Below are positions 43,433-60,600 of a stretch of 64,000 nucleotides of DNA, one piece after another (position 1 is the stretch's first letter; the number at the start of each line of letters is the position of its first letter). The DNA is from Anoxybacillus tengchongensis. Its GTDB lineage: Bacteria > Bacillota > Bacilli > Bacillales > Anoxybacillaceae. The stretch is from contig NZ_JACHES010000009.1 in NCBI RefSeq assembly GCF_014201585.1, positions 1 to 64,000 on the forward strand, written 5' to 3'. The position numbers and the translations under genes were made by a program. The notes beneath the pieces are model-generated. The model saw only the letters and a list, made by a program, of their open reading frames with translations. It did not search any database and was not told the DNA's origin.

Positions 43433-43457
43433 CAGCGTGCTAGACGTTGGCTTTTTT
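43433..43457 (+). repeat. 25-bp direct repeat, copy 1, also the sensor kinase terminator
   Basis: A 25-base sequence with core CAGCGTGCTAGACGTTGGC ending in six T bases. It forms a terminator hairpin (GCCAGCGT with ACGTTGGC) and recurs exactly at 44604-44628, bracketing the rpn gene and decayed CRISPR. Confidence 0.85.
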
Positions 43458-43527
43458 ATATAGCTATGCAGGGAAATGGCTGATGTTGTCGAATAAAAAC
43501 GTCAAAAAAAGTATGCGAGGTGAATGT

Positions 43528-44379
43528 ATGTCCATTGATCACGATCGTCTGTTTAAAGAGTTAATTCAAACGTTTTTTGAGGAGTTTATCGTTCTCTTTT
43601 TCCCAACGATGCATGAGCATATCGACTTTCAACACGTATCGTTTTTGTCGGAGGAGCTGTTTACCGATGTAACGGCAGGGGAGAAGTATCGCGTTGATTT
43701 GTTGGTCGAAACGAAATTGAAAGGGGAGGATAGCCTAATTATTGTCCATATCGAAAACCAAAGCTACGTCCAACCATCGTTTCCTGAACGAATGTTTATT
43801 TATTTTAGCCGTTTGTTTGAAAAACACCGTAAACATATCGTACCGATTGCCGTCTTTAGCTACGATACGATCCGCGATGAACCATCGACATTTACCCTCC
43901 AATTTCCGTTTGGTCATGTGCTTGATTTTCATTTTTTCACTGTGGAACTTCGTAAACAAAACTCGCGAAACTACATTCGTCAAGACAACCCGATCGCCGC
44001 TACACTACTAAGTAAAATGGGGTATACTGAAAGTGAACGGGTAGAGTTGAAAAAACAATTTTTACGCATGCTTGTCCGAATGGAATTAGACGAAGCGAAA
44101 CAACGGTTGTTGTTTGGCTTTTTTGAAACATATGTAAAACTATCAGATGAAGAAGAACGAAGACTGCGAAGCGAGGTGAATGAAATGGAGACGAAAGAAA
44201 AAGAACAAGTGTTGGAACTTATTATTTCGTATGAACAAAAGGCGTTGGAAAAAGGAAGGGAAGAAGGGATGAAACGTCTTGTACAAACGATGGCGAGAAA
44301 AGGAATGAGTGCAAAAGACATTGCGAACGTCACAGACCTTGCGGAAGAAGAAGTGAAACAGCTATTGGAAAAAGAATAA
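43528..44379 (+). CDS. Rpn-family recombination-promoting nuclease, intact copy
   Basis: A 283-residue PD-(D/E)XK-fold protein of the Rpn/PDDEXK transposase-like family. The likely active site is Asp57 in RVDLLVE with Glu76 and Gln78 in HIENQSY, the E-x-Q form of the motif. Residues about 175-283 are a charged coiled region with EKGREEG and a C-terminal GMSAKDIANVTDLAEEEV helix pair. The start at 43528 follows GCGAGGTG. It is the only complete copy of four in the window and lies directly upstream of a decayed CRISPR leader. Family members have DNA-cleaving activity and promote recombination. Confidence 0.85.
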   Translation: MSIDHDRLFKELIQTFFEEFIVLFFPTMHEHIDFQHVSFLSEELFTDVTAGEKYRVDLLVETKLKGEDSLIIVHIENQSYVQPSFPERMFIYFSRLFEKHRKHIVPIAVFSYDTIRDEPSTFTLQFPFGHVLDFHFFTVELRKQNSRNYIRQDNPIAATLLSKMGYTESERVELKKQFLRMLVRMELDEAKQRLLFGFFETYVKLSDEEERRLRSEVNEMETKEKEQVLELIISYEQKALEKGREEGMKRLVQTMARKGMSAKDIANVTDLAEEEVKQLLEKE

Positions 44380-46959: not shown

Positions 46960-46983
46960 CCAGCGCATGAGGCGCTGGTTTTT
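46960..46983 (+). terminator. Terminator after the racemase gene
   Basis: CCAGCGC (46960-46966) pairs with GCGCTGG (46972-46978), followed by T bases. Confidence 0.8.
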
Positions 46984-47232
46984 ACATAGCCTTTGCGCAC
47001 GACGTTTCCGCGTCCGAATGCCTCCTTTGGGTGGCAACACTTCTCATGAAAACAAATAACAAAACAGCGCCGGATTTAAGTTTGTAAGACAAACTCGAAG
47101 ACGCTGCCTAAAGCGACAATCGATACCCGTGTGCTCGATGTCAGAACTGTTGGCGATTTGAGACAAAGCGAAACGAATAAGTTGATGACATCTTAGAACG
47201 AAACGAAAGTGGAAACAGGACATGTTTACCTT
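46984..47232. other. Intergenic stretch without recognised gene
   Basis: About 250 bases with no credible ORF, RNA or repeat. It marks the change from the GC-richer backbone to the AT-richer dynamin island. Confidence 0.5.
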
Positions 47233-47595
47233 TCAACTATCCCAGTCAAACATACAAGTTGTGCAAATATCATTTCTCACGACTCCGCCACATATTTGGC
47301 ATGTGTATGAATATGATGGAATTGAATCGAAATCAAATTGTTCTATTGAAACAGGTTTTTTAAATTCCTTAAACGGATCTTTCTTATGTTGAACTTGATT
47401 TGAATTGGACATATCGTTTGTTATGTCATCTATAGATAAAATGAAATAACCTTTAAATTTTTCCCCGACCTTTATGTCCTCGTTTACAATCTTCCATGCT
47501 TTGTGGTTAGGTTGAACGTCCAAATACCATCGATATATTTTTTGATCAGGTCCTTTGCACAAAACAACATATTTTTTAAAAGGTTGTATTAACAT
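47233..47595 (-). CDS. Small protein with C-terminal zinc ribbon
   Basis: A 120-residue protein. The N-terminal part is beta-rich (KKYVVLCKGPDQKIYRWYLD, then KVGEKFKGYFILSIDD). The C-terminus carries CQICGG...CTTC, a four-Cys zinc ribbon. The start at 47595 follows GGGAGGGGGAG, much better than the longer frame. It is AT-rich like the dynamin genes and may belong to that island. No family recognised. Confidence 0.6.
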   Translation of the reverse strand: MLIQPFKKYVVLCKGPDQKIYRWYLDVQPNHKAWKIVNEDIKVGEKFKGYFILSIDDITNDMSNSNQVQHKKDPFKEFKKPVSIEQFDFDSIPSYSYTCQICGGVVRNDICTTCMFDWDS

Positions 47596-47787
47596 GTTTG
47601 CTCCCCCTCCCATTTGTTTCAACACATAGTGTGAAAAATCCCTTTGGTGAAATATATGTTTACCTATCTTCAATATCGACAGCGGACAACATCAATATCG
47701 TCATGATTGTTCCACTTCTTTTTGGTATTTCTTTCATTTTACTATAAATTTTGATAAAGAGAATACATGAAATTCGGGATAATTGTT
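47596..47787. other. Intergenic stretch upstream of the zinc-ribbon gene
   Basis: AT-rich and without a supported gene. Plausible -10-like hexamers exist on the minus strand, but none has a convincing -35. Confidence 0.4.
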
Positions 47788-48078
47788 CTAAAGAAATTGT
47801 TCTTCATCTTCACGAATGTAAAAGCAGGCGGTTTCATGCGAAAAGATTGGATAGTTGGGGATAGCAATCATAATGGTAGAGGAAAGGATGTCGTATCGTT
47901 TTCCTTTTGATAGCGAAGGGAAAAACAACCGCATTGCCGTATTTTGTTTCTTTGGTGAGCTCGGTGTTTTCAAAATCAACATCGACGATGCGATCGTCCT
48001 CTTTTCAGTGTAAAAGTACGTTTAAAACATCATCGTAATTGATTTTCTGTTTAGATGATCGAACAGCCGTTTAAACAT
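47788..48078 (-). pseudogene. Remnant of a second PD-(D/E)XK transposase-like gene
   Basis: Minus-strand pieces resemble the N-terminus and middle of the PD-(D/E)XK nuclease transposase family. FKRLFDHLNRKSIT lies near 48078 and DDVLNVLLH in another frame. Then LSKGKRYDILSSTIMIAIPN leads to FYIREDEEQFL, corresponding to the usual KG..Y..L...I.I.I and hLREDEE features. Frames change at least once and the catalytic region is missing. It differs from the rpn copies elsewhere in the window. Confidence 0.5.
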
Positions 48079-48254
48079 AAAAATCCATTTTTAAATCAAG
48101 AGATGGCGTACACTCCATTCTTTCGAGGTAAATACAATTTCGTTACAATAGAGAAATATGGGGGGGCTCAGGTCTAAGATTACATTTTTTTAGATGTAGA
48201 AAAATATTTTATCGACAAACGACGATACACTTCAAGAAATAACATAAAAAACAT

Positions 48255-48313
48255 CCATGAGCAAGTTTTGCTCGCCACCTAGCATGGAAATAACCGCCCA
48301 TGGATTGGTTATT
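48255..48313. repeat. Two adjacent perfect hairpins upstream of the dynamin island genes
   Basis: CCATGAGCAA and TTGCTC...CATGG (48255-48287) nest an outer 5-bp and an inner 6-bp stem. AATAACC (48289-48295) then pairs with GGTTATT (48307-48313). The rest of 48079-48385 has no supported gene. The hairpins could be an RNA element, a protein site or the end of a small mobile element. Confidence 0.4.
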
Positions 48314-48385
48314 TTCACAGAAAAAAGAGGGATTGGGTAAAAAATGTGAAATTTAATAATCAACAACACGTATGGAGGGATGCTG

Positions 48386-48763
48386 ATGGATAGAATATCG
48401 TTTGCTGAACAAATGTGGGAAGAACTATTGTCTATGCTTTATGAAGGAAAAGTTGTGTCAACATTTAAAGGAAAAGCTACTTTTACAGTTGTGTCATTTT
48501 CTGATAATGGAATCGAAGTACGGATCGCATCAAAAACAAATGAGAAAAAATCTTTAAGTAGAAAAGTTATGATGAATGCCATTTATAAGTTGATCGATCA
48601 TATCGATGGTGTGCGTCAAAAAATGGTCGATCCCGAATCACGTTTAAAGCTTGGTTTACTTTCCCTTCTTCCATCAACTGAAAAAGTAAGAAAAGTAGAA
48701 GCAAAAAGAAGTGTGCTATATTTGATCCTGACATCAGAGACACGAAAAAAATTGACAGAATAG
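48386..48763 (+). CDS. Hypothetical protein of the dynamin island
   Basis: A 125-residue soluble protein. It starts at the second of two close ATGs because GGAGGG at 48374-48379 abuts the first. It has DRISFAEQMWEELLSMLYEG, a beta-rich centre (KATFTVVSFSDNGIEVRIAS) and a charged helical end. No family recognised. It is the first plus-strand gene of the island, 68 bases before the Gly-rich gene. Confidence 0.6.
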   Translation: MDRISFAEQMWEELLSMLYEGKVVSTFKGKATFTVVSFSDNGIEVRIASKTNEKKSLSRKVMMNAIYKLIDHIDGVRQKMVDPESRLKLGLLSLLPSTEKVRKVEAKRSVLYLILTSETRKKLTE

Positions 48764-48831
48764 AGGGATATTTGTCATTATAAGAGATATGTTGAAAAAA
48801 CTAGTTTGTTGAAGAAATGGAGGGGAATTGC

Positions 48832-49665
48832 TTGGGTTTTTTTCGGGGGTTAGGAAGATTCGCTGGCAAGGCAACGGGTACGGTAATCGGTGGAGCTGTA
48901 AATGTTGTTGGTGAGTTAACGGGAAGTGAGTGGGTAAAAGAAGTTGGAAATGGTGTGAAAAAAGCTTCAGAGTTTACTGGCGACACATTCGGACAAGTAT
49001 TAGATGGAGTATGGGACACAGCCGCAGGTATTGCAAATAAAGATGAGAAAAAGATTGAAAAGGGACTTGAACATATTGGTGAATCGGTTTCACGTACAGT
49101 AAAAGGGGTATATTATACTGCTAAACATACATATGAAAATGGAAAAGAAGTTTATGAGGGAATACGTGATAATGATGAGAACAAATTGAAAAATGGTTTA
49201 GCTGAAATTGCAAAAACAGCTGCGGTGGGAATGTTGGCGGTTGGAGTTGTTGATATCATAGATGGTGCTGATTATGCCGGTTCGATAGAAGGGGATATTA
49301 AATCTATGGATATGGACGATGATACATTGCATCAAACAGTTAATCATGTCGGGACGGCAGAAAATAATGTGGGGAATTTAGGTAAAATAGATTTTGTTGG
49401 TAAAGAAGATTGGATAGAAAGCAATGGTGATTGGATGAGTAAAGAGGATGAAAACGAGACTTACTTAGAAGAAGTAGAGGAGGAAAGTACTGGAATACAT
49501 CATATTCGTCCCCATTGGGTTGACGGATATTGGAGAGAAGGTCAATGGATTGAAGGGTATTGGCGTGATGGAGATGGAAATACAGGCGTGAACTTAACTG
49601 AAGAACAAGGCGGAGGCTATATAAGAACGAATCCAGACGGGAATCCAGGGAACAATTTAACATAG
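48832..49665 (+). CDS. Gly-rich protein with YWRDGDG C-terminal module
   Basis: A 277-residue protein with a TTG start; GGAGGGG at 48819-48825 lies six bases before it, whereas the open-frame ATG at 48817 overlaps that site. Residues 1-60 are Gly-rich and amphipathic (GRFAGKATGTVIGGAVNVVG). A helical middle has EKGLEHIGESVSRTVKG, and a hydrophobic stretch follows (VGMLAVGVVDIIDG). The last 50 residues (HIRPHWVDGYWREG, then GYWRDGDGNT and QGGGYIRTNPDG) are shared with the minus-strand protein at 51197. It may insert into or associate with membranes. Confidence 0.65.
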   Translation: MGFFRGLGRFAGKATGTVIGGAVNVVGELTGSEWVKEVGNGVKKASEFTGDTFGQVLDGVWDTAAGIANKDEKKIEKGLEHIGESVSRTVKGVYYTAKHTYENGKEVYEGIRDNDENKLKNGLAEIAKTAAVGMLAVGVVDIIDGADYAGSIEGDIKSMDMDDDTLHQTVNHVGTAENNVGNLGKIDFVGKEDWIESNGDWMSKEDENETYLEEVEEESTGIHHIRPHWVDGYWREGQWIEGYWRDGDGNTGVNLTEEQGGGYIRTNPDGNPGNNLT

Positions 49666-49864
49666 GCTGATGTTAGTCTAGATTATAGACACGAAGAATA
49701 GAGGAATGTATAGCAAACCTATCAAATCCATAGGGAGTGTCTATAATGATGAGGCTAGCTAGTTCAGACGTTCCTGACATGTTGCGCCAACATATTAGAT
49801 GGTCAGCCTAGATCAAGCCGAAAAGGCCATTCGTGAATTGGCCCAGTTTTAAGGAGGGGTGACG
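49666..49864 (+). other. Intergenic stretch with inverted repeat and ORF relics
   Basis: TTATAGACAC (49683-49692) and GTGTCTATAA (49737-49746) are a perfect 10-bp inverted repeat. Short open pieces after it (SSDVPDMLRQHIRW, then LDQAEKAIRELAQF in another frame) look like a frameshifted small gene, not recognised. Confidence 0.4.
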
Positions 49865-50794
49865 ATGGCGATAGAGGAAGTTACGATGCCACAGTTTGGC
49901 GGAAGTGTAACGGAAGGAACGATTAGGCAATGGATCGTATCTGTCGGTGACCGCATCAATAAATACGATCCACTTGTTGAAGTAATAATGTCAGATGAAT
50001 GTTTTAATGGGACCATTATATCTTTATATGATGGTGTTATTAAAGAAATTATTGCAAAAGAAGGAGAAACATTACCTATTGGTGCTGTCATTTGTACGAT
50101 TGAAGTCGAAGGAGAAGGACAAGTAGAGGAAAAGCAAACGAACGTGAAACAGGAATTATTGTCAACGAAGGAACAAATAAATAGCCAGTCGCTGAAAAAT
50201 CACATAGGTGAGGGTGAATGTTATTCTACTCCAGCTCTTGAGCCAGACAAAGAACAGGAGGAGAATATTTTGAGTGAAGAGGATATATCTTTATCCTTTG
50301 TTTTAAAAGTATTATTGGGAAACAAACGATTTATTGATAAAGTGTTATCTTATCAGGTCGAGGAAAACGAGCTTAAAGAAGAAGTGAAAAGATGGAAAGA
50401 AGACATTCATCGGTTGCGCTTAATACTGTACGAACAAGATAAACATATGTATGAGTTAAAATTGAAGTTTTGCATGCTAAAATCATATCAACTTATCGAA
50501 AAATCACGGCAAAGGGCTAAACTCAGAGGTACTATCATATTTCAACATGCATTTAAAACATATATAGAGTTGCTTGTTCAAAAAACTAAATTTAACTATA
50601 ATTTTCTTGTAAATGAAAAAATTTTCTTTAATATCTTTCGAAAAATGATTAATGGTATGAATATTTCAATAGAAGAAAGAGTATTTTTAAAAGAATATAT
50701 AATGTTAAAACATAAAGATGAAATTGAATCTTTGGTTGAGATTAATATCGATCGGTTAGTTGAAAGTGTGGGGACGTTAGATGTTGATAATTAG
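49865..50794 (+). CDS. Lipoyl-domain-like protein with helical C-terminus
   Basis: A 309-residue protein starting behind AAGGAGGGG. Residues 1-80 have the biotinyl/lipoyl fold of 2-oxoacid dehydrogenase E2 proteins (TMPQFGGSVTEGTIRQWIVS, VGDRINKYDPLVEV, AKEGETLPIGAVICTIE). The modification site normally reads TDK; here it is SDE, so there is no lysine to lipoylate. After an acidic linker, residues about 150-300 are helical with coiled-coil character. No acyltransferase domain is present. It overlaps the next gene by 14 bases. It is probably an adaptor, not an enzyme subunit. Confidence 0.7.
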   Translation: MAIEEVTMPQFGGSVTEGTIRQWIVSVGDRINKYDPLVEVIMSDECFNGTIISLYDGVIKEIIAKEGETLPIGAVICTIEVEGEGQVEEKQTNVKQELLSTKEQINSQSLKNHIGEGECYSTPALEPDKEQEENILSEEDISLSFVLKVLLGNKRFIDKVLSYQVEENELKEEVKRWKEDIHRLRLILYEQDKHMYELKLKFCMLKSYQLIEKSRQRAKLRGTIIFQHAFKTYIELLVQKTKFNYNFLVNEKIFFNIFRKMINGMNISIEERVFLKEYIMLKHKDEIESLVEINIDRLVESVGTLDVDN

Positions 50795-51134
50795 AGGGAC
50801 ATTATTGTATCTCTTGCACTTTCTCATGTATCTTGTTGTTAATGTAATTGTTATGGCTATTATTTTCTTAGTTGTGAAGTTTATCGTTACATTTGTGTTT
50901 TCTGATAACACATTTATAGAGGGAATTGCTTTTATACTAATGATATTTATCGGCGGGCTTTTGTTTCTTTCTTCATGTATTTTGGCTTATGAGGATTTTA
51001 AAGAAAACTTCATATCTGTTGTTTGGAATCATGCGTATGAAGAATTTCAAGGCTTTGATGAAATGTTAAAACTTACACTTAAAAACATGTGGAAGTCGGA
51101 TCGTATTGTTCATAGTGATAGCGAAGGGGTATAA
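50781..51134 (+). CDS. Small membrane protein of the dynamin island
   Basis: A 117-residue protein with two or three hydrophobic helices (about 8-40 and 45-68), starting LLYLLHFLMYLVVNVIVMAI, and a soluble C-terminal tail (ENFISVVWNHAYEEFQGFDE). It overlaps the end of the lipoyl-like gene, so they are coupled. It may anchor that protein or the GTPases at the membrane; this is inference. Confidence 0.6.
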   Translation: MLIIRGTLLYLLHFLMYLVVNVIVMAIIFLVVKFIVTFVFSDNTFIEGIAFILMIFIGGLLFLSSCILAYEDFKENFISVVWNHAYEEFQGFDEMLKLTLKNMWKSDRIVHSDSEGV

Positions 51135-51168
51135 TTTTTAGGGATTTTTAATAATTTAATAAAATAGG

Positions 51169-51194
51169 AAAACCAGGGAAGCCCCCTGGTTTTT
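51169..51194. terminator. Bidirectional terminator in the centre of the island
   Basis: AAAACCAGGG (51169-51178) and CCCTGGTTTT (51184-51193... ending in T bases) form a stem that can end both convergent transcripts. Confidence 0.85.
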
Positions 51195-51196
51195 GC

Positions 51197-51610
51197 TTAT
51201 AGATTGCTTTTTAGATTATTTAGTGTTGTGTGATCAGGATTTGAACGCAAGTATCCGCCACCTTGTTCCGTCATACGATTAATACTTGTATCACCATCAC
51301 CATCACGCCAATAACCTTGTACAACTGTTCCATCTTTACGCACATAGCTGTCTACATAATGTGGTTTGACAAAATGAAGGTTATCGACATTTAGGTGAAA
51401 AGGTTTAAATTTGAATTTATAAACGTATTTTAACGGATCATGATGATCAAATATGTGATTAAAATGGTCAAATGATGAAAAAGTATTTAAATCGATGGAT
51501 GGTGTTACGTGTCCGTCTGGAAGAGGGAATTGAAAATCTCTTCCGTAGTCTTGATCAAATAAATCAGAGACGTTAGATTGATCAAAGTCTTTGAAAAAAG
51601 AATCACTCAT
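51197..51610 (-). CDS. Small acidic/His-rich protein with YWRDGDG C-terminal module
   Basis: A 137-residue protein. The first half is Asp/Phe/His-rich (FFKDFDQSNVSDLFDQDYGR, then DHFNHIFDHHDPLKYVYKF). The last 55 residues repeat the module of the protein at 48832: VKPHYVDSYVRKDG, GYWRDGDGDT and QGGGYLRSNPD. It follows the smallest dynamin-like gene by 14 bases and closes that operon. The shared module ties the two convergent gene sets to one system. Function unknown. Confidence 0.65.
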   Translation of the reverse strand: MSDSFFKDFDQSNVSDLFDQDYGRDFQFPLPDGHVTPSIDLNTFSSFDHFNHIFDHHDPLKYVYKFKFKPFHLNVDNLHFVKPHYVDSYVRKDGTVVQGYWRDGDGDTSINRMTEQGGGYLRSNPDHTTLNNLKSNL

Positions 51611-51624
51611 TATGATATCCTCCT

Positions 51625-53409
51625 TTACTTTTGTAACAAATGGTATGGATAATCTTGTATTTCTTGTTTTAGCTGTTCAAGAGCATCTTGTTGTGCAAGT
51701 GCAGAAGAAGTTGCTTCTTGTTTGTTTGTAATTTGTTCTTGTATGATTTTTTCAGTATATTGGAGTAGACGATAAAACTCTTCTAATGTAAAATCTTTGA
51801 TGTCTTTAATCGCTTGACTTATAAACCCACTCATATGTTGATCAAAATCATCAAATAAGCTAGTGATGCTTTGATCAATATGGAAAAGGAGCTCCGGTTT
51901 AATCTGCTCGAGTTGTTTATCAGCTATTTTGCGATATATCAATGGGAAACCAGCTGCCCCAATAATTGGGACAACAAAGGACGCTCCCATTAATAGTGCG
52001 ATTGTACTAGCTCCACCAACGAGAAGCCCAGCTTTGACAGAAGCGTTTTCTGTATGGACAGCCGTTAATGATAGGTTAGCCTCATAGTTAATTTTTTTTA
52101 AGAGTGGTACATTAATCTGTACAGTTTGTTTAAATGCTTCCGTTAGACCTTTAGAAAGCTCCATTTCCAACTTATGAAGCAAAGTGTATATATAGTCGCT
52201 ATATTGATCGATCCAGTTGGTAAAATGAGAATGAAGGACGGAAGGTAAATGGGATTCCACAAATGTTTTTATGTCGGAACCGTGAAAATAGGTAATCTTA
52301 TGTTTTATGTCTGCTTTTACTTTTTCCTCAAATGCTGCAACTGATTTTTTCACTAAATACTGAATTTCCTCTTCACGTTCATACAAATATTGTTTAATTT
52401 GCATCTCCCAATTCTCTCTTTGTCCAAACCAAGACTCAATCTTCTGTACCTCGTTTTTTAATACATCTAAAGATTGCTGAGCAGCTTGTTGGATGAGATC
52501 AATTTCTGCGCATATTAAATCAAGAATGTGTTTTAATCGGTTAGTGAAATGAGATAGCTTCTCTTCACTTCGTGAACCGTGTTCAATCGTTCTTTTTATT
52601 TGTTGCTCAAGATCAATCATTCCCGAATAATGTAATAATTCTTCGTTTCCATATAGTTTTCCTTCCAATGCTTCTTGAGCTGAAATTGGAAAAACAAGTG
52701 GATTTTCTTGTCCAGTAATGTTTTCAATTCTTCTCTTGATTAGATCAACAACGTCTTCAATCTCTTCTTCATCGATTCGATCCATGAAGTTGGCAACATA
52801 AAGAATTCGATCTTTTACATGCTTTAGAGCATTCTTTTCTAAAAATTCCTGCTCAGATTTTTTTAATGGAGCTGTCATATCGAGCATAAAGATTATAACA
52901 TCAGCTCTTGGAATAAATCGATGAGTAATCTCAGAACGGTGTTGATTTAGGTCATTTAATCCGGGAGTGTCAACTAAGACCACTCGTTTTTCTAGAAAGG
53001 GAGAAGGAAGAAAGATTTTTAAGTATTTAATTTCATTATCACCATCGCCATGATAGGAAGCAGTATAATTTTGTAATACATCATGTGATAAATGTTTAAT
53101 CTCTACTTCCCCGTCCCGCTTAACTACATGTATTTCCGGTGTGTTACTAAAAAAAGCAGCATGAATGAGCGCTGTAGTAGGGGTGACATCGACAGGCATA
53201 ACATTTTCCGATAATAATGTGTTCACAAAAGTGGATTTGCCATGTTTAAACTCCCCGACTACGACAATTGTGTAATAATCTTGACGTATATCGTCTATAA
53301 GGTCACTCAACGCTTCTAATTGTTGACTTGACGGCATTTCTTTTTTTATTTTTTCTAAAAGAGAAGAGGCGTGTTGCAGTAGCTCAGCTTTTTTTTGTTC
53401 ATAATTCAT
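51625..53409 (-). CDS. Dynamin-like GTPase A (594 residues)
   Basis: A bacterial dynamin-like protein. G1 GEFKHGKST is at residues 52-60, G2 Thr lies in DVTPTTA near 75-80, G3 DTPGLN at 147-152 and the G4-like NFMD at 207-210. Long helical stalk regions follow, with a hydrophobic paddle-like stretch near residues 455-490 (LLVGGASTIALLMGASFVVP). It overlaps the end of GTPase B by four bases. Bacterial relatives often act as adjacent pairs on membranes. Confidence 0.88.
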   Translation of the reverse strand: MNYEQKKAELLQHASSLLEKIKKEMPSSQQLEALSDLIDDIRQDYYTIVVVGEFKHGKSTFVNTLLSENVMPVDVTPTTALIHAAFFSNTPEIHVVKRDGEVEIKHLSHDVLQNYTASYHGDGDNEIKYLKIFLPSPFLEKRVVLVDTPGLNDLNQHRSEITHRFIPRADVIIFMLDMTAPLKKSEQEFLEKNALKHVKDRILYVANFMDRIDEEEIEDVVDLIKRRIENITGQENPLVFPISAQEALEGKLYGNEELLHYSGMIDLEQQIKRTIEHGSRSEEKLSHFTNRLKHILDLICAEIDLIQQAAQQSLDVLKNEVQKIESWFGQRENWEMQIKQYLYEREEEIQYLVKKSVAAFEEKVKADIKHKITYFHGSDIKTFVESHLPSVLHSHFTNWIDQYSDYIYTLLHKLEMELSKGLTEAFKQTVQINVPLLKKINYEANLSLTAVHTENASVKAGLLVGGASTIALLMGASFVVPIIGAAGFPLIYRKIADKQLEQIKPELLFHIDQSITSLFDDFDQHMSGFISQAIKDIKDFTLEEFYRLLQYTEKIIQEQITNKQEATSSALAQQDALEQLKQEIQDYPYHLLQK

Positions 53410-55334
53410 ACATACTCCTCCGTCTTTTGAGAGTCCTCTAATTCATTATAAAGGGATTGTAACGAGTTTTTAATCATGTTTAATTTCGTTTCCCATCTTT
53501 CTATTTTTTCTAACCGAGTTTGTATTTCTGTCTCTTCCATTTTTGTGCTATCTATCATTTGTCTTATTTGGGATTGGAATCTAGAAATTTGGTCCTGTAA
53601 AACTTGTTTATATTTGTTTTCTACTTCTGTTAATAAGTATTGTAACTCCTCCTCTAGTGCTTTAATTTTTTCAATTTTTTTCTGTTCAAATTGGAATGTC
53701 AAATCGCGACGCATTCTTTGTTTTTCGTCTTCTCCAGATAGCCAATTAAATAGTGCCCCTATACCACCAATAATAATACCTGCAATAACTGCACTCACCC
53801 CGAGTACGAGTTTCACAGCAAGATTGTAATTTCGAGAATGTCCTATTATATCTAAAACCTCCTTCACTAAATCGAAGCCTGTATCATATGTGAAGATATC
53901 TATTTCTCTCATAGTGTCATTGTTTTCTTCTTTTTTCCATAATTGTTCTACCTCCAGATTAATTTGTCCCAATTGTTTATTTACTTCCTCACTAGATCTT
54001 TCCATACTCTTTTGGACTGCTTGTTTGATTTGCTCGAATTTTTGAAGATGTATTTCGCGTTCTTGTACACCTAAAAAGTCTTCTACTTTTCTTCCTAACT
54101 CACTAGCAGATAAATAACTATGGTCATCGAATAATTGTAATGCATCCGTATAAATAGTTTGTAATGCTTTTTCATACCATTGTTTGATTTCATATTTCTC
54201 TTTTTTGAGATAAAAAGAAAGATTTTTTTGGGCTCTTTGGCTTATCTGTTTTAAATGTTCAACTTGTTTCATAATAGAATCGATTTTAGTATGTAAGTCT
54301 TCTTTTTTTGTCTTGAGTACGCTGCGTTCAAAGGAAAGTTGTTTATTTATAACTTCATTGATGCTTTTGATAGATCGTTGAATAGGTTTTTTTAGCTTTA
54401 CTGCCCCGCGTTCATATTCAAGGAAATGAGCGAGGGATGTTTCAAATTCGATAAAACCTGTATGTTCGTAGTCCCAAACAGCGATTGGTCCTCTTCGAGT
54501 TGTCAGTACTTCTCCATTGGCTTTCCTTTTCGCGTTTAGTGCTTCTTTTGCTGCGACCATGAAAATTTTCGGTTCTTTTAAAATCGGTTTTAAATTTGTT
54601 GTAGCGTAGTCCATAACTTTTTTCATGTCTTCTTCTGTCTTTAATAAATCTTTGAAATTAATGACGATAAATATTTTATGAATGTCATTTTCTAAAAGTC
54701 TGTTCTTTAAAAAACTTAGTTCTGATTCAGAAAGTATTTTGGTAGCAGATAATAAAAGAATAGCTGCATCTGACTTCGGAATAATATTATTTGTAATTTG
54801 TTCCCTCATTGGATCTAAGTCGTTCGTTCCAGGGGTGTCGATAATTTCTATTCCATTTTTGCATACTTCAATGGGATAGCCAATTTTGGCATAACTAATA
54901 TTTCGTAGAAAGTCTAACTGTTTTTTGTATTCAGATTCTGACCGTGGATCACCTATAATCGGATCTTTTGGAGCGACGATTTGTGAAAATTCATGCTCTG
55001 TTATAGATAATGTTGGTTTGGTTTTATCGTGAAAATATATATGAATACAAGGTTCAACGCTATAAGAGATAATATTCAAAATAGCCGTTGTCGGTTTAAC
55101 GGATGAAGGTAGCAACTTCTTCCCGAGAAGGGCATTGATAAAAGTAGATTTTCCACGTGAAAATTCACCGACAACAACGATCTGAAATTTGTCGTTCTTT
55201 ACTTCTATTTTTAGTTCTTCGATTTTCTTTTTCTCGCTACTCTTCATATCTTCTAAAGTAAAAAGATATTCGTCTAATAACAAAAGAACTTGATTTTTCT
55301 TTTCTTTAAAAAAATTTAATGTGAGATGATTCAT
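53406..55334 (-). CDS. Dynamin-like GTPase B (642 residues)
   Basis: G1 GEFSRGKST is at residues 56-64, G2 in VKPTTA, G3 DTPGTND at 166-172 and a G4-like NFKD in IFIVINFKDLL. Long coiled-coil stalk segments follow. Near residues 515-545 there is a hydrophobic hairpin (LAVKLVLGVSAVIAGIIIGG), probably a membrane-inserting paddle. It is only about 35% of the way toward GTPase A in sequence by eye, with similarity concentrated in the GTPase domain. It sits between C and A in the operon. Confidence 0.87.
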   Translation of the reverse strand: MNHLTLNFFKEKKNQVLLLLDEYLFTLEDMKSSEKKKIEELKIEVKNDKFQIVVVGEFSRGKSTFINALLGKKLLPSSVKPTTAILNIISYSVEPCIHIYFHDKTKPTLSITEHEFSQIVAPKDPIIGDPRSESEYKKQLDFLRNISYAKIGYPIEVCKNGIEIIDTPGTNDLDPMREQITNNIIPKSDAAILLLSATKILSESELSFLKNRLLENDIHKIFIVINFKDLLKTEEDMKKVMDYATTNLKPILKEPKIFMVAAKEALNAKRKANGEVLTTRRGPIAVWDYEHTGFIEFETSLAHFLEYERGAVKLKKPIQRSIKSINEVINKQLSFERSVLKTKKEDLHTKIDSIMKQVEHLKQISQRAQKNLSFYLKKEKYEIKQWYEKALQTIYTDALQLFDDHSYLSASELGRKVEDFLGVQEREIHLQKFEQIKQAVQKSMERSSEEVNKQLGQINLEVEQLWKKEENNDTMREIDIFTYDTGFDLVKEVLDIIGHSRNYNLAVKLVLGVSAVIAGIIIGGIGALFNWLSGEDEKQRMRRDLTFQFEQKKIEKIKALEEELQYLLTEVENKYKQVLQDQISRFQSQIRQMIDSTKMEETEIQTRLEKIERWETKLNMIKNSLQSLYNELEDSQKTEEYV

Positions 55335-55413
55335 AGTTGCACTCCTTTTCGATTGTGACAGGGGACGTAAAAAGATGACAGCCCCCTTGTCTTGTTTATT
55401 ATATTTTGAAACT

Positions 55414-58338
55414 TTATAGTGGTGTTTCTTCTAAAATGTTTAAGAAGATCATATCCTTTATTAATATGTTCCCTTCCGAAGTAATTACGACACGGTATTG
55501 ACTTTCAACTCTTTTACGCTCTGCTGTTCCATCCCGATAATAGTAACTGTCTTCATAATACACATTGACGAGATAATGCTGTTCATCTTCTGGTGTAATC
55601 GATGTCACTTGAAACAAATGATTTTCCATCATCATTTGTTTTTCTAAAACAAAGTCTAAAAACTGTTTTATCTTTTCGTACTCACTACCCTCTGGTGCAT
55701 AATATGGTGCAACAACGGAGAAGCCCCCTCCGTTAAATGCTTCAGTAAATGATGTATAAAAATCACTCATAAAAGCTTCCAATTGATCATCAGATACGTA
55801 TTCAATGGTCTCAGTTTCTCTCGGTGTTATTCCTATCAAATTATAGGAAAAGCGAGAAATCAAAGGTGATCCATTATCTGGTAGTAAAGATATTGTATAC
55901 GTGCCCTTGATCTGTTTTATTTCTTCTGCTGTTTCAAATATTTCAAGAGTTGTCACTTCAATTTGATCATCGGAGAGGAGTTGATAATCGGTAACAGTTA
56001 GCTTGTTATAGTATTCTCCTTTATGAGCTTTATAATATTCTTCGAAATCGTTCCATCCAGCTTCTGAGAACCATTCATTCCATCGAAAAAGTGTTGGATT
56101 ATTTATGTTTGTACTCAGCTTCTCGTATAATCTCGTCATATAGTCTTCAATAGTTGATTGTCCCCAGTCGTATGCGTTTTGTATGTGTTCATTCTCTACA
56201 AATTCTTCCTCCTCTATGACATCTTCCTCTATGACATCTTCCTCTATGACATCTTCCTCTATGACATCTTCCTCATTCATATCTACTGTTTCTTCATCCA
56301 TTTGAGCGAAAGTTTGTAATTTATTCAAGACAATGTCCATTGTATTCAGCAGCGGTTTTCTTATAGATTCTTTTGAAAGTGCCATGAGAAACACACAAAT
56401 TAATACAGCCATGGTGAAATGAATGTGTAAAGTTGTTACTCGAGCCATCTCTTTAGTTGTTGGATAGTCGATTGTGTTCGGGATTTGGTCGTATAAATTA
56501 TCTGTCCAAAGGTTTAAAGTTATTTGTTTTTCGATACGTTCAGTATTGAGTGAGAATAAGTTTGAATTTTTCCAACTAATAAAATCACCATAGCCATATA
56601 TAAAAGGCTCAAATGCTGTATCAGCATATATTGTTTGAATGTTGTTAAATAAGTACCGGCAATGATGATAAGATTGTACATTTGTTTGTTGTTCTTGTGC
56701 ACTTATATCTGTGAAGAAAGGTGAAAGTGCTTTAGTAAACGAATGTATCCATTGAATATCTTCGTGAACTTTTTTACATTCTTTTTTGAGAAACGGTTTG
56801 TATGTTTTGTACATTTTGTTTTTTTCTGTGTGCCAGTTGCGTTTCAAAGAAGAGATTTGTTTTTTTAGAAAAATGATTCTATAGTTAATATCTTCTAATA
56901 TAAAATTTTGAAGTGTTTTGATATGGGATATGATATCCTGACGTTCTAAATTAATGTTAGCACATTCTATACGCAAATCTTTGATTGCTGAGTTAAAACG
57001 AATTTGCTGATCGTTAAACGCTTTAAGTTTCCTTTTTCTAAAAAATTTATATGTTTTTTCTATATCATTCAATATTCTCTTTAAATTTTGCTCCTCTATT
57101 TTTGTTTTTTCAACTCGGTGCATAAATTCATTATATTTTTCTATATAAGTTTGATAAAGTGAAGACAATATGATTTTCCAATGTTCAATTGTTGAAGATA
57201 AATCTGTTTGATTACTAAACATCCATTTAGAATGGAACTTCTCTATGCTTTTTGTGTAAGATTTGATCCATTCATCAATTTCATTTAATTCGTTGAGTTC
57301 TTCTGGAATGAGTTCGTTCCATTGTATAATCTGTTGTTGTATTGCCATGACTTCGTCTTCGATTTGTTGTTTTAATTGTAACATTGCAGGATAATCTTTT
57401 TTCACAAATGAGGGTATTAATTGTGATAACTCTGTTGATAAATACATTGCCTTACGTTTGATAAATAGCTCGTCTATTTGTTGAAGAACGTCTTTTAATC
57501 GGATAAATGTTCGTTCCTCTTTTAAAGCCAATGATTGTGATTGAATTTTGTTTAACAAAGAGTCAACTTTTTCCCAATTACTCCACTCGTACTTCACGCG
57601 GTCTTGAAATATTTTTGCTTCTAAAGCTTCTTTTGCAGAAATGCCGATAAGGTGGTCAACAATTCCTTGTAAACGACGTTTGTTGAACTCCAGAACTTCT
57701 TCCAGAGGCTCCTGTTCTTCATCGTGTAAGTCGATTCGATTCACAAGTGTTGCACAAGGGATTTTGTATTGTTGTAGTTTCTTTATCATCTCGACTTCTG
57801 ATGCTGTTGCTGTATGTAAATAGTCGAATAGCCAAATAACAAAATCTGCTTTTTTAATAAATGTTTCCGTTGCTTCCGTATGATGCGAGTAGTTAGAATT
57901 TAGACCGGGAGTATCAACAATTGTAATTTTTTTTAACAAAGAATTTGGAAGTTTAAGTTCGATGAATGAAAGCTTTTTCCTAAGATTTTCTCCTTCTTTT
58001 ATTTCCGTTGTTAACTGTTTCAATTTTTCTTCTGAATAGTTCTCTTTTTGCCCATTTGTAAAATGTGCAATTAGTTCTTTCTTTTCTCCGTATACTAACT
58101 TTGTAACTACTGCTGTGGCAGGGATGACATCTGAAGCTAAAACTTCTTCCCCAAGTAATGCATTAATAAAAGTTGATTTCCCGGCTTTAAATTCTCCGGC
58201 AACTGCAACTATGCATGGGTATTTCAATGTTTCCTGAATATCTATTAATTCATTAACAAATGATTGTTGTTCAGGGTGTTTTTTCGACAAAGCTATCCAT
58301 GTATTTAACATTTGGTCTAAGTACTCTAGCTTACTCAT
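55414..58338 (-). CDS. Dynamin-like GTPase C with membrane helix and TcaA-like C-terminal domain
   Basis: A 974-residue protein starting at 58338 behind AAAGGTGA; the open frame extends 23 codons further without a ribosome site. G1 GEFKAGKST is at residues 48-56, G3 DTPGLN at 142-147 and G4-like NRID. A long coiled stalk runs to about 620. One membrane helix (AVLICVFLMAL) lies near 640-656. Four EEDVI repeats lie near 688-710. The last 260 residues resemble the NTF2-like C-terminal region of TcaA/YvbJ proteins (FYTSFTEAFNGGGFSVVAPY, then YEDSYYYRDG and QYRVVITSEGNILI). The GTPase should be inside and this domain outside the membrane. Confidence 0.85.
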   Translation of the reverse strand: MSKLEYLDQMLNTWIALSKKHPEQQSFVNELIDIQETLKYPCIVAVAGEFKAGKSTFINALLGEEVLASDVIPATAVVTKLVYGEKKELIAHFTNGQKENYSEEKLKQLTTEIKEGENLRKKLSFIELKLPNSLLKKITIVDTPGLNSNYSHHTEATETFIKKADFVIWLFDYLHTATASEVEMIKKLQQYKIPCATLVNRIDLHDEEQEPLEEVLEFNKRRLQGIVDHLIGISAKEALEAKIFQDRVKYEWSNWEKVDSLLNKIQSQSLALKEERTFIRLKDVLQQIDELFIKRKAMYLSTELSQLIPSFVKKDYPAMLQLKQQIEDEVMAIQQQIIQWNELIPEELNELNEIDEWIKSYTKSIEKFHSKWMFSNQTDLSSTIEHWKIILSSLYQTYIEKYNEFMHRVEKTKIEEQNLKRILNDIEKTYKFFRKRKLKAFNDQQIRFNSAIKDLRIECANINLERQDIISHIKTLQNFILEDINYRIIFLKKQISSLKRNWHTEKNKMYKTYKPFLKKECKKVHEDIQWIHSFTKALSPFFTDISAQEQQTNVQSYHHCRYLFNNIQTIYADTAFEPFIYGYGDFISWKNSNLFSLNTERIEKQITLNLWTDNLYDQIPNTIDYPTTKEMARVTTLHIHFTMAVLICVFLMALSKESIRKPLLNTMDIVLNKLQTFAQMDEETVDMNEEDVIEEDVIEEDVIEEDVIEEEEFVENEHIQNAYDWGQSTIEDYMTRLYEKLSTNINNPTLFRWNEWFSEAGWNDFEEYYKAHKGEYYNKLTVTDYQLLSDDQIEVTTLEIFETAEEIKQIKGTYTISLLPDNGSPLISRFSYNLIGITPRETETIEYVSDDQLEAFMSDFYTSFTEAFNGGGFSVVAPYYAPEGSEYEKIKQFLDFVLEKQMMMENHLFQVTSITPEDEQHYLVNVYYEDSYYYRDGTAERKRVESQYRVVITSEGNILIKDMIFLNILEETPL
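56211..56270 (-). repeat. Four 15-bp tandem repeats inside GTPase C
   Basis: Exact 15-base units (CCTCTATGACATCTT on the plus strand) at 56211, 56226, 56241 and 56256 encode EEDVI four times. The acidic linker lies just outside the membrane helix and could vary in length by slippage. Confidence 0.9.
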
Positions 58339-58706
58339 TATGTTCACCTTTAGAAGAAAATGTTTGTATGCTGTTGTTTCTAGTTTGAATTTGATCAAAC
58401 GATCCATTTAAATAAACATCGAGCATCGATAGAAGCTTCTTGTGATTAGTAGCAAAAAAACTATTTGAGAGAAGCTTTTATGATAAAATTCCTGTATTTA
58501 CAATTATCTTATATTTTCCTTCAAACATCAATATTGAGATAGAGTGGATAGTGTACTGTTTGTCTGGAAAATATACGTGCATCTCGTTTTAGGTCTATCT
58601 CATTTATAGTTTGACTTATAACTATATTTTCCATGATGAAAAGTTGTGGTTCTTAAATAAAGCCTCAAGACGATCTCATTCGACAATTTACGATTGAGAA
58701 AAACGC
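58339..58706. other. Intergenic stretch upstream of GTPase C
   Basis: AT-rich and without a supported gene. It must contain the promoter of the minus-strand dynamin operon, but I see no convincing -35/-10 pair. The right end meets an rpn remnant abruptly near 58707. Confidence 0.4.
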
Positions 58707-59252
58707 GGCTTGTTTGAAAAATACCGTAAACACATCGTACCGATTGCCGTCTTTAGCTACGATACGATCCGCGACGAACCATCGACATTTATCCTCCAAT
58801 TTCCGTTTGGTCATGTGCTTAATTTTCACTTTTTCACTGTGGAACTTCGTAAACAAAACTGGCGCAACTACATTCGCCAAGACAACCCGATCGCCGCTGC
58901 ACTGCTTAGTAAAATGGGTTATACTGAAAGTGAACGGGTAGAACTGAAAAAGCAATTTTTACGCATGCTTGTCCGAATGGAATTAGACGAAGCGAAACAA
59001 CGGTTGTTGTTTGGCTTTTTTGAAACATATGTAAAACTATCAGATGAAGAAGAACGAAGACTGCGAAGCGAGGTGAATGAAATGGAGACGAAAGAAAAAG
59101 AACAAGTGTTGGAACTCATGATTTCGTATGAACGACAAGGCATGAAGCATCTTATACAAACGATGGCGAAAAAAGGGATGAGTGTAGAAGATATTGCACG
59201 CATGACAGACCTTGCGAAAGAAGAAGTACGGGAGCTGTTAGAAAAGGAATAA
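58707..59252 (+). pseudogene. 5'-truncated rpn-family nuclease gene
   Basis: The reading frame starts in the middle of the family sequence (LFEKYRKHIVPIAVFSYDT) and continues to the normal end LLEKE. About 110 N-terminal residues, including the D...ExQ catalytic core seen in the copy at 43528, are missing. The C-terminal helix is shortened (SYERQGMKHL). A short ATG-started product is possible but would not be an active nuclease. It directly precedes leader 2. Confidence 0.85.
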
Positions 59253-59444
59253 GTAATTTGTGTATTATTTCACAACTGTCGTCGACCTCCAATCTTGCAA
59301 AAACTCCGGGGGATCGACGACAAGTTGCTTTTTGCAAGTTTTTTAGACGGATCAAGGCATAAAGATTATTGACTGAATTTTCGGATGTATGTATAATGAT
59401 GTTGTATACCTTTTCCATACATTGATTTATCAATACTTTTTGGG
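59253..59444 (+). promoter_or_regulatory. CRISPR leader 2 with two mutually exclusive hairpins
   Basis: Almost the same as 33174-33365, including the TGTCGTCGA/TCGACGACA inverted repeat, the CTTGCAAAAA/TTTTTGCAAG terminator stem with T run, the GAATTTTCGGATGT block and the TTTTTGGGG before the first repeat. Confidence 0.85.
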
Positions 59445-60556
59445 GTTTGTATCGTACCTATGAGGAATTGAAACACGTGGAACAATGGGACAAAGGCATG
59501 GGAGCGTGCTGAGTTTGTATCGTACCTATGAGGAATTGAAACACGACGAAAGATGGTTTCGTCTTCGTCTGCTGGATTGTGTTTGTATCGTACCTATGAG
59601 GAATTGAAACAATATTTTCCACATTCTCAGTATGTGTATCCTACTAAGTTTGTATCGTACCTATGAGGAATTGAAACCGATGTTATACCTGTTCTTTTGA
59701 GTGCTTCAGAAGCTGTGTTTGTATCGTACCTATGAGGAATTGAAACAAATTTCCAGTTTTCAGCTTCTTGAACGCGGGTTGTATGGTTTGTATCGTACCT
59801 ATGAGGAATTGAAACGTCGATGTAAACATGCCATTGCGGAAACAATTCAACGTTTGTATCGTACCTATGAGGAATTGAAACAAACAATGCCCTAATTCAC
59901 GGTCTGTCATGTCTGTATAGTTTGTATCGTACCTATGAGGAATTGAAACCTCGTGAAAATCGTTGATATATCAACAGTTGGACACCGTGGTTTGTATCGT
60001 ACCTATGAGGAATTGAAACATCACCAACATTTGATTTCTCTTTTTCATGCTAATGTTTGTATCGTACCTATGAGGAATTGAAACTCGATGTGCCGAAAAG
60101 AGAACTAGGTGCGGAGGTAGTGTTTGTATCGTACCTATGAGGAATTGAAACGATTCATGAGAGCCACCTCCTGCAACTAGTGTTTTTAGTTTGTATCGTA
60201 CCTATGAGGAATTGAAACTAAAAACTTAATAACTAATCTGTTTTTAACCAGACACTGTTTGTATCGTACCTATGAGGAATTGAAACCTACTTGCGTATAT
60301 CGTGTAATGCGGTCCAGCCGATTTGAGTTTGTATCGTACCTATGAGGAATTGAAACGATTCATGAGAGCCACCTCCTGCAACTAGTGTTTTTAGTTTGTA
60401 TCGTACCTATGAGGAATTGAAACCGGATCTGCCCAGACATCGTATTCGTGCCAACGCCCATTTGTATCGTACCTATGAGGAATTGAAACGGGTCGCTCCA
60501 GACCTCATACTCATGCCAACGTCCATAGTTTGTATCTACCTATAAGGAATAAAAAA
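59445..60556 (+). CRISPR. CRISPR array 2: sixteen repeats plus a degenerate terminal repeat
   Basis: The 30-base repeat begins GTTTGTATCGTACC, continues TATGAGG and ends AATTGAAAC, one base different from array 1. Repeats start at 59445, 59513, 59581, 59648, 59717, 59786, 59852, 59920, 59990, 60055, 60122, 60189, 60257, 60327, 60394 and 60460 (first base A). The degenerate one is at 60528. Sixteen spacers are 35-40 bases. The spacers at 60152-60188 and 60357-60393 are identical. The last two (60424-60459 and 60490-60527) are related to each other. Confidence 0.97.
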
Positions 60557-60557
60557 A

Positions 60558-60585
60558 AGTCAGCGTGTTCGGCGCTGACTTTTTT
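60558..60585. terminator. Terminator between CRISPR array 2 and azoR
   Basis: AGTCAGCG (60558-60565) and CGCTGACT (60573-60580) with T bases on one side and A bases on the other. It can end both the array transcript and azoR. GTCAGCGTG also occurs after the decayed array at 44602. Confidence 0.75.
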
Positions 60586-60600
60586 ATCGTATGAAAACAA

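What the first reader, a model, noticed from the sequence alone, without database searches (positions are those of the whole stretch)
47233..58338. AT-rich island with three dynamin-like GTPases and partner genes
Three tandem dynamin-like genes and a small tagged protein on the minus strand converge on four plus-strand genes around one bidirectional terminator. The plus-strand genes encode an unknown protein, a Gly-rich membrane-active-looking protein, a lipoyl-fold protein without lysine, and a small membrane protein. The composition differs from the backbone and the island sits between two rpn/CRISPR loci. Known bacterial dynamins act in pairs on membranes, and some (DynA) affect phage tolerance. 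I do not know this gene combination as a described system; a membrane-protection or antiphage role is inference.
Basis: partly seen in the sequence, partly recalled or inferred. Interest (0 to 1): 0.82.

Follow-up and report, generated by a model that had tools for sequence, protein, structure and literature searches.

The report
Three-dynamin operon with swappable envelope domain
This is a bacterial gene set of three membrane-shaping dynamin-like GTPases plus, usually, one small partner protein, one of the GTPases often carrying a membrane anchor and an interchangeable tail that probably faces the cell wall; it travels as a unit and looks like an uncharacterised membrane-protection or antiphage system.

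Summary
The unit is four minus-strand genes: D3 (dynamin, membrane helix, extra C-terminal domain), D2 and D1 (dynamins) and TAG (small protein). D1 occurs in 22 of 397 sampled genomes of the order; all 22 have D2 and a third dynamin at the locus. A separate D2 search hit 21 of 368 genomes, all D1 carriers. TAG-like ORFs lie at 20 of 22 loci, three weak, but at few loci outside Bacillales. D1 and D2 are constant; the third dynamin is modular: TcaA/NTF2-like (here), SH3b, nuclease, beta-helix, Sel1, a bare membrane tail, or a soluble replacement. One complete copy is on a plasmid; the closest sibling has an empty site. Defence genes near relatives are somewhat enriched. The four plus-strand genes are not partners: U127 and GLY sit with an ADP-ribosylglycohydrolase in relatives, and LIP carries a copy of the host's lipoyl domain without its lysine. 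Best reading (inferred): an envelope-anchored dynamin positions a D1/D2 coat that stabilises the membrane under attack.

The parts
55414..58407 (-). D3: third dynamin-like GTPase, 997 aa from the longest ORF (974 aa from the better-fitting ATG at 58338). GTPase, long helical stalk, one membrane helix, acidic linker, C-terminal NTF2-like (TcaA_5th) region
56377..56460 (-). Predicted membrane helix of D3 (model residues 650-677; best 19-residue hydropathy 2.12 at residue 659)
56192..56281 (-). 15-bp tandem repeat coding an acidic VIEED-type linker in D3, in a low-confidence stretch of the model
55420..56160 (-). D3 C-terminal region: two alpha/beta units in the model (residues 750-862 and 873-996); best TcaA_5th Pfam stretch at 873-986
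53406..55334 (-). D2: dynamin-like GTPase, 642 aa; its stop overlaps the D1 start by 4 bases
51625..53409 (-). D1: dynamin-like GTPase, 594 aa, with a hydrophobic paddle-like segment near residues 455-495
51197..51610 (-). TAG: small protein without a membrane helix, 137 aa. Conserved DPLK motif and C-terminal (P)HYVxGYxRxDGTxVxGYxRDGDG...GGGYxRSNPDG module
51169..51193 (-). Terminator-like hairpin (11 pairs) between the two converging gene groups
   Evidence: consensus match only

Best explanation
A horizontally moving operon encodes a three-part dynamin machine. Shown: D1, D2 and a third dynamin stay together across many Bacillales and some Selenomonadaceae, with TAG in most Bacillales copies; D1 and D2 are constant; the third dynamin has a very variable anchor or C-terminal domain. 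Inferred mechanism: D1 and D2 are cytosolic and pair through their GTPase domains, as in other paired bacterial dynamins, inserting paddle loops into the membrane. D3 is a membrane-spanning dynamin (N-terminus in, C-terminus out) whose outer domain contacts the cell wall (TcaA/NTF2-like here, SH3b or others elsewhere). D3 thereby places or triggers the D1/D2 coat where the envelope is damaged, for example by phage entry, holin action or membrane-active antimicrobials. The coat then stabilises or reseals the membrane and delays lysis, as reported for DynA. TAG is probably a small regulator or adaptor.
For: D1 in 22 of 397 genomes of the order, own genome included; all 22 have D2 and a third dynamin at the locus (D2 interrupted in L099, D1 cut by a contig end in L109). 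Separate D2 profile: 21 of 368 genomes, all D1 carriers. Mantel r 0.91, 0.90 and 0.89 for D1-D2 (21 loci), D1-D3 (16) and D2-D3 (16), none of 5000 permutations as high; matching subclades in a 113-row tree. TAG-like ORF at E<=1e-3 in 20 of 22 loci (window). Third-dynamin forms in the 22 genomes: TcaA/NTF2 8, SH3_3 4, C-terminal membrane tail only 3, short without helix 1, soluble with the P-loop at residue 369-387 in 6; plus SNase (second copy in L100), and beta-helix (L159) and Sel1 (L176) outside the sample. Of 10 helix-bearing D3s (hydropathy 1.8 or more) with a long tail, 7 have more K/R before the helix than after, 2 are equal and 1 (the window's) is the reverse, which leans to C-out. Closest solved relatives are the BDLP1, Cj-DLP1/2, IniA and mitofusin branch. 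Mobility: complete copy on Lysinibacillus plasmid pFN9B, 5-6 kb from AbiEii and DUF6088 genes; empty site in the sibling. Defence context: 136 flank proteins of 18 loci matched 20 PADLOC models under 10 names, including a Bunzi pair (BnzA 2e-130, BnzB 1e-78 in L101), against one model (mad3, also in the flanks) for 141 control proteins. DynA clusters at the membrane and delays phage lysis (PMC8844932, abstract).
Against: No functional datum exists for any member. The defence enrichment is modest: I scanned 20 of the 136 flank proteins one by one and located 3 hits, of which the RT-protease hit in L107 covers only the protease part of that model; the RtcR-type hits are not specific to defence. 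Charge around the window's own D3 helix does not favour C-out (2 K/R before, 3 after). SH3-type D3s of the sample have weak helices (hydropathy 0.95-1.40), and 6 of 22 third dynamins are soluble, so wall contact cannot be the common trigger. TAG was not found in seven non-Bacillales loci (L164, L167, L169, L172, L173, L176, L188) and only at E 1e-2 in L168, so it is not universal. Almost no copies were seen in phage or viral collections.
Confidence: 0.45

Rival explanations
1. A general envelope-stress or membrane-maintenance system (antimicrobial peptides, heat, cell-wall antibiotics), an accessory extra to DynA, with no dedicated antiphage role.
For: TcaA itself acts on wall teichoic acid retention and glycopeptide sensitivity (PMC10328498, passages); SH3b domains are wall-associated (general knowledge); the window genome also has a DynA-sized dynamin of 1225 aa (L289).
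Against: Patchy presence (22 of 397), plasmid carriage and an empty site in the sibling fit an accessory conflict system better than upkeep; some defence genes nearby.
Confidence: 0.3
2. An abortive-infection system: on phage sensing the dynamins fragment or permeabilise the cell's own membrane and kill the infected cell.
For: Same genomic evidence as the best explanation; a nuclease (SNase) C-terminal domain occurs in one D3 paralogue (L100).
Against: No known toxic domain in the window's D1, D2, TAG or D3 or in the other D3 forms scanned, SNase apart. The experimentally studied dynamin DynA delays lysis instead.
Confidence: 0.12
3. A member of the Eleos (Leo) dynamin defence family.
For: D1 and D2 match PADLOC LeoA (PDLC03839) and LeoBC (PDLC03841) models (D1 86 and 84 bits, D2 86 and 62), mostly somewhat above either half of the host's DynA-type protein (49-77 bits).
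Against: The models do not discriminate: whole DynA reaches 106-112 bits (two dynamin halves added), its halves 49-77, and D1/D2 orthologues from six other loci 41-81 where they match these two models. D1 scores 47.5 against the 325-bit cut-off of NCBIfam LeoA/HP0731. The solved LeoA structure is a weak hit of the D1 profile (28.6 bits) against BDLP1 (152 bits). No third dynamin or tag protein is known to me in Eleos (recalled).
Confidence: 0.07
4. One reading: all eight or nine genes of the island form one system.
For: They share one low-GC island absent from the sibling; GLY and TAG share the tag module (55% identity).
Against: U127, LIP, MEM and ZR are not near the dynamins in the 22 relative loci; GLY's N-terminal domain is independent of D1 across genomes; U127 and GLY flank a gene for an ADP-ribosylglycohydrolase in L258, L261 and L265 with no dynamins beside them; LIP's C-terminal part has no match in 298 other genomes.
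Confidence: 0.04

Closest known systems
Bacillus DynA (two fused dynamins; antiphage by delayed lysis; PMC8844932)
   Same: Bacterial dynamin superfamily, Bacillales, two cooperating dynamins; the second half of this genome's DynA-sized protein falls weakly next to D2 in the tree (82/73)
   Different: DynA is a single long polypeptide present almost throughout the family: 38 of the 39 other family genomes with a D3 hit have it in a 1210-1313-aa frame (the name DynA is by size and recall). Here D1 and D2 are separate, with a third modular dynamin and TAG; accessory and mobile
Campylobacter jejuni Cj-DLP1/Cj-DLP2 pair (5OWV; PMC6104087)
   Same: Side-by-side hetero-pair of dynamins; among the best profile and fold matches
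   Different: No third dynamin, membrane-spanning ectodomain or tag protein described in the passages read
Leo/Eleos dynamins (LeoA, LeoBC; PMC4159319)
   Same: Multi-gene dynamin locus; LeoC has a predicted membrane helix (passages)
   Different: Only superfamily-level similarity
Nostoc BDLP1 (2J68)
   Same: Best solved-structure match of the D1 profile (E 1.6e-43); its entry 2J69 is the top fold hit of D3 by E-value (3.5e-14), though TM-scores are low (0.22/0.30)
   Different: No operon of this composition known to me (recalled)
TcaA (Staphylococcus aureus; wall teichoic acid retention; PMC10328498)
   Same: The C-terminal NTF2-like TcaA_5th domain of D3
   Different: TcaA is not a dynamin (recalled); here the domain is fused to a GTPase through a membrane helix

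Membership tests
Dynamin superfamily (bacterial dynamin-like proteins) | Dynamin_N GTPase domain with P-loop, G3 and G4 motifs | tested here: met
   Pfam E 2.4e-24 to 7e-31 for D1, D2, D3; motifs
Dynamin superfamily (bacterial dynamin-like proteins) | Helical stalk and membrane-binding segment | tested here: met
   D3 model: helices between 279 and 614 and at 650-677; hydrophobic segments in D1 and D2
Dynamin superfamily (bacterial dynamin-like proteins) | GTP hydrolysis and membrane remodelling | not testable with these tools
   Needs biochemistry
Eleos / Leo | LeoA and LeoBC proteins at family level | tested here: not met
   D1 47.5 bits against a 325-bit cut-off on NF041922. PADLOC has no cut-off here: D1/D2 and their orthologues score in about the same range as the halves of a DynA-type dynamin
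DynA (NF052648) | Single fused double dynamin reaching the curated cut-off (1600 bits) | tested here: not met
   75.7, 79.1 and 68.4 bits; separate genes
TcaA | TcaA_5th NTF2-like C-terminal domain | tested here: met
   67.7 bits against a 23.6-bit cut-off; domain shared, whole protein not claimed to be TcaA
Antiphage defence system | Location among defence genes | tested here: inconclusive
   20 PADLOC models (10 names) in 136 flank proteins against 1 model in 141 control proteins; 3 hits located among 20 proteins scanned singly
Antiphage defence system | Protection against phage | not testable with these tools

The most novel reading that the evidence does not exclude
A transmembrane, outside-in dynamin immune machine: D3's exchangeable outer domain reads wall or envelope damage and, through the membrane, nucleates a cytosolic D1/D2 coat gated by TAG; recognition evolves by swapping the outer domain while the remodelling core stays constant.
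Probability: 0.22. Interest if true: 0.87.

Novelty: new variant of a known kind. Interest (0 to 1): 0.62.

Why it matters
Bacterial dynamins are usually described as pairs (PMC6104087, passages), and how they are told where to act is open. Here nature supplies a constant D1/D2 core with a third dynamin whose anchor and outer domain are swapped between species. That makes the targeting question directly testable by domain exchange in a harmless laboratory host. If it protects against phage, it would be a second, mobile way by which dynamins shield membranes besides DynA.

Tried and rejected
Eleos/Leo membership: disfavoured by the NCBIfam cut-off and the solved-structure comparison. I first took the higher PADLOC score of whole DynA as decisive; DynA has two dynamin halves, and each half alone scores 49-77 bits, so that control only shows that the PADLOC models do not discriminate; I raised this rival from 0.06 to 0.07. 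Plus-strand genes as partners: rejected. Phage or prophage origin: a D1 profile gave 2 weak loci in IMG/VR (of 27 stretches that matched one of two patterns) and D1 gave 1 partial record among 50,697 phage records; rejected. Myxococcota hits of the genome scan: D1/D2-like dynamins without the D2-D1-third arrangement, treated as superfamily only. Sequence search of D3's C-terminal part (288 aa) against solved structures: no hit at E<=1. TAG structure: low confidence overall (mean pLDDT 65.9), a small beta element only. The sibling site as a defence hotspot: in the seven siblings with the left flank the gap there ranges from about 45 bp to 7.8 kb; I read the ORFs in four of them, which by eye hold gluconate genes, an AI-2E-like gene, rpn-like genes and in one case a methyltransferase pair, so not clearly a defence hotspot. 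Literature: nine searches listed no paper on this operon; only open-licence PMC papers are held, so this is weak evidence of absence. MEM and ZR were compared only with the 22 relative loci, not with whole genomes.
Full report
What is in the window. The minus strand carries D3 (55414-58407), D2 (53406-55334), D1 (51625-53409) and TAG (51197-51610) in one direction: a 79-bp gap between D3 and D2, a 4-base overlap between D2 and D1, and 14 bp between D1 and TAG. All three large proteins are dynamins by Pfam with intact GTPase motifs. D3 also has a C-terminal TcaA_5th domain. The four plus-strand genes U127 (48380-48763), GLY (48817-49665), LIP (49859-50794) and MEM (50781-51134) converge on TAG across a terminator-like hairpin. 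ZR (47233-47673) lies beyond them on the minus strand.

The unit. A two-row D1 profile searched in 397 genomes of the order hit 22 at E<=1e-30, the window's own included. I read the region around each of the 21 others. All 22 have D2 next to D1 and a third dynamin at the locus; in L099 D2 is interrupted and in L109 the contig ends inside D1. A separate D2 profile on 368 genomes hit 21, every one a D1 carrier. TAG-like ORFs at E<=1e-3 lie in 20 of the 22 loci (the window, 19 of the other 21); the misses are L109 (contig end) and L117. Three hits are weak (1e-4 to 2e-4: L110, L111, L114), and the TAG model was built from 15 proteins, 14 of them from these loci, so the count leans towards finding them. 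Outside Bacillales TAG was not found at L164, L167, L169, L172, L173, L176 and L188, nor at the Bacillales loci L160 and L174, and L168 gave only E 1e-2. Protein distances correlate at r = 0.91 (D1-D2, 21 loci), 0.90 (D1-D3, 16) and 0.89 (D2-D3, 16), with none of 5000 permutations as high; shared ancestry of the genomes raises such values too. A 113-row tree of GTPase domains gives matching subclades for D1, D2 and D3, although only D3b is a single supported group and several placements are weak. A scan of one genome for each of 84,980 species kept its best 80 of 516 relatives; 26 of the 80 hold all three dynamins (27 with L185, whose third is weak): Bacillales, Selenomonadaceae, a Peptococcaceae and an Armatimonadetes bin; some are the same genomes as in the sample. 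A phylum-wide sample of 398 gave one further strong D1 (E 1e-158) and 18 weaker hits (1e-61 to 1e-83) whose loci I did not read.

The third dynamin is modular. In the 22 genomes the protein in the third position ends in a TcaA/NTF2 domain in 8 (seven by Pfam, L100 by a model built from the other seven, E 4e-47), SH3_3 in 4, a bare C-terminal membrane helix in 3, is short without a helix in 1, and is a soluble protein with the P-loop only at residue 369-387 in 6. L100 has a second copy with an SNase domain. Outside the sample there are beta-helix/NosD (L159) and Sel1 (L176) versions, more TcaA (L153, L154, L157) and more SH3_3 (L163, L165, L033). The D3 model (mean pLDDT 79.7, pTM 0.51) shows the GTPase, a long stalk, a helix at 650-677, a low-confidence acidic linker and two alpha/beta units. 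Of 10 D3s with a clear helix and a long tail, 7 have more K/R before the helix, 2 are equal (L033 and the second copy in L100) and the window's own is the reverse, 2 against 3; this leans to C-terminus out.

The plus-strand genes are something else. U127, LIP, MEM and ZR have no homologue in the 22 relative loci (21 sampled plus plasmid locus L033), and GLY matches only through the tag. By my count of the rows, 54 other genomes of 396 match GLY: 10 only through the tag and 44 through its N-terminal domain. Of these 44, 3 have D1 (G172, G177, G376), as chance predicts; the nearest pair, in G172, is about 16 kb apart. U127 occurs in 12 of 41 family genomes including the window's own; in L258, L261 and L265 it lies with GLY on either side of a gene of 306-323 aa that is an ADP-ribosylglycohydrolase (Pfam E 3e-65 for the L258 copy; the others by likeness). 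Both GLY relatives without the tag that I scanned (L122, L126) carry a colicin-type DNase domain instead, so GLY looks like a polymorphic-toxin trunk. LIP's first ~125 residues are 70% identical (DNA 82% over 362 bp) to this genome's own E2 lipoyl domain, with the lysine replaced; the rest (residues 131-311) matched nothing in 298 other genomes.

Mobility and context. The sibling G006 has about 290 bp where the window has 46969-60597. A complete D3-D2-D1-TAG set lies on Lysinibacillus capsici plasmid pFN9B, with AbiEii and DUF6088 genes 5-6 kb upstream. Flank scan: 136 proteins from 18 loci (L103, L109, L114, L033 and the window left out) matched 20 PADLOC models under 10 names at 1e-15, one protein per model except mad3 with two; 141 control proteins from the same 18 genomes matched only mad3. 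I scanned 20 of the 136 singly and located BnzA and BnzB in L101 and an RT-protease hit in L107 that covers only the protease part. The number of distinct flank proteins is therefore not exact. With 7 or 9 assumed against 0, p is 0.006 or 0.001; 9 against 2 gives 0.03.

What it is and is not. PADLOC LeoA/LeoBC hits do not show Eleos membership: on the two main models D1 and D2 score 62-86 bits, their orthologues from six other loci 41-81 where they match, and each half of the host's DynA-type protein 49-77; the curated NCBIfam LeoA cut-off is missed by far. The closest solved relatives are BDLP1, Cj-DLP1/2, IniA and mitofusin; the D3 fold search agrees by E-value, with low TM-scores, probably because the model is long and flexible. 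Paired bacterial dynamins form hetero-oligomers (PMC6104087, passages), and DynA clusters at membranes and delays lysis after phage infection (PMC8844932, abstract and outline). From these I infer the mechanism given as best explanation. Co-inheritance and modularity are shown, and mobility is supported by the plasmid copy and the empty site; topology, wall contact, phage role and TAG's function are inferred.

Noticed in passing
window 49859-50794: LIP carries a copy of the host's own E2 lipoyl domain (82% DNA identity over 362 bp) with the lipoyl lysine lost, fused to an orphan C-terminal part: a possible decoy or captured domain.
   Followed up: partly
window 48380-49665; L258, L261, L265: U127 and GLY belong to a cassette that in these relatives includes an ADP-ribosylglycohydrolase gene; GLY relatives L122 and L126 end in a colicin-type DNase/WHH domain instead of the YWRDGDG tag.
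   Followed up: partly
window 59445-60489: CRISPR array of 16 repeats (Rfam CRISPR-DR2, minus strand); the repeat-spacer units at 60122 and 60327 are identical. Spacers were not matched to phages.
   Followed up: no
window 43447-44379 and 58705-59268: Two rpn/YhgA-like copies flank the region about 14.9 kb apart (94% over 300 nt); the second is truncated.
   Followed up: partly
L066 (sibling G006, contig 22): A different dynamin locus: a 716-aa dynamin, a 597-aa protein with P-loop and DTPG motifs, a small coiled-coil-like protein and a HerA-like ATPase, with transposase-like pieces by eye.
   Followed up: no
L034 (Paenibacillus sp. 37 plasmid pART37): Another three-dynamin cluster with coiled-coil-like proteins, placed outside the D1/D2/D3 groups with long branches; LeoA and LeoB are the best PADLOC matches of the two proteins scanned.
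   Followed up: partly
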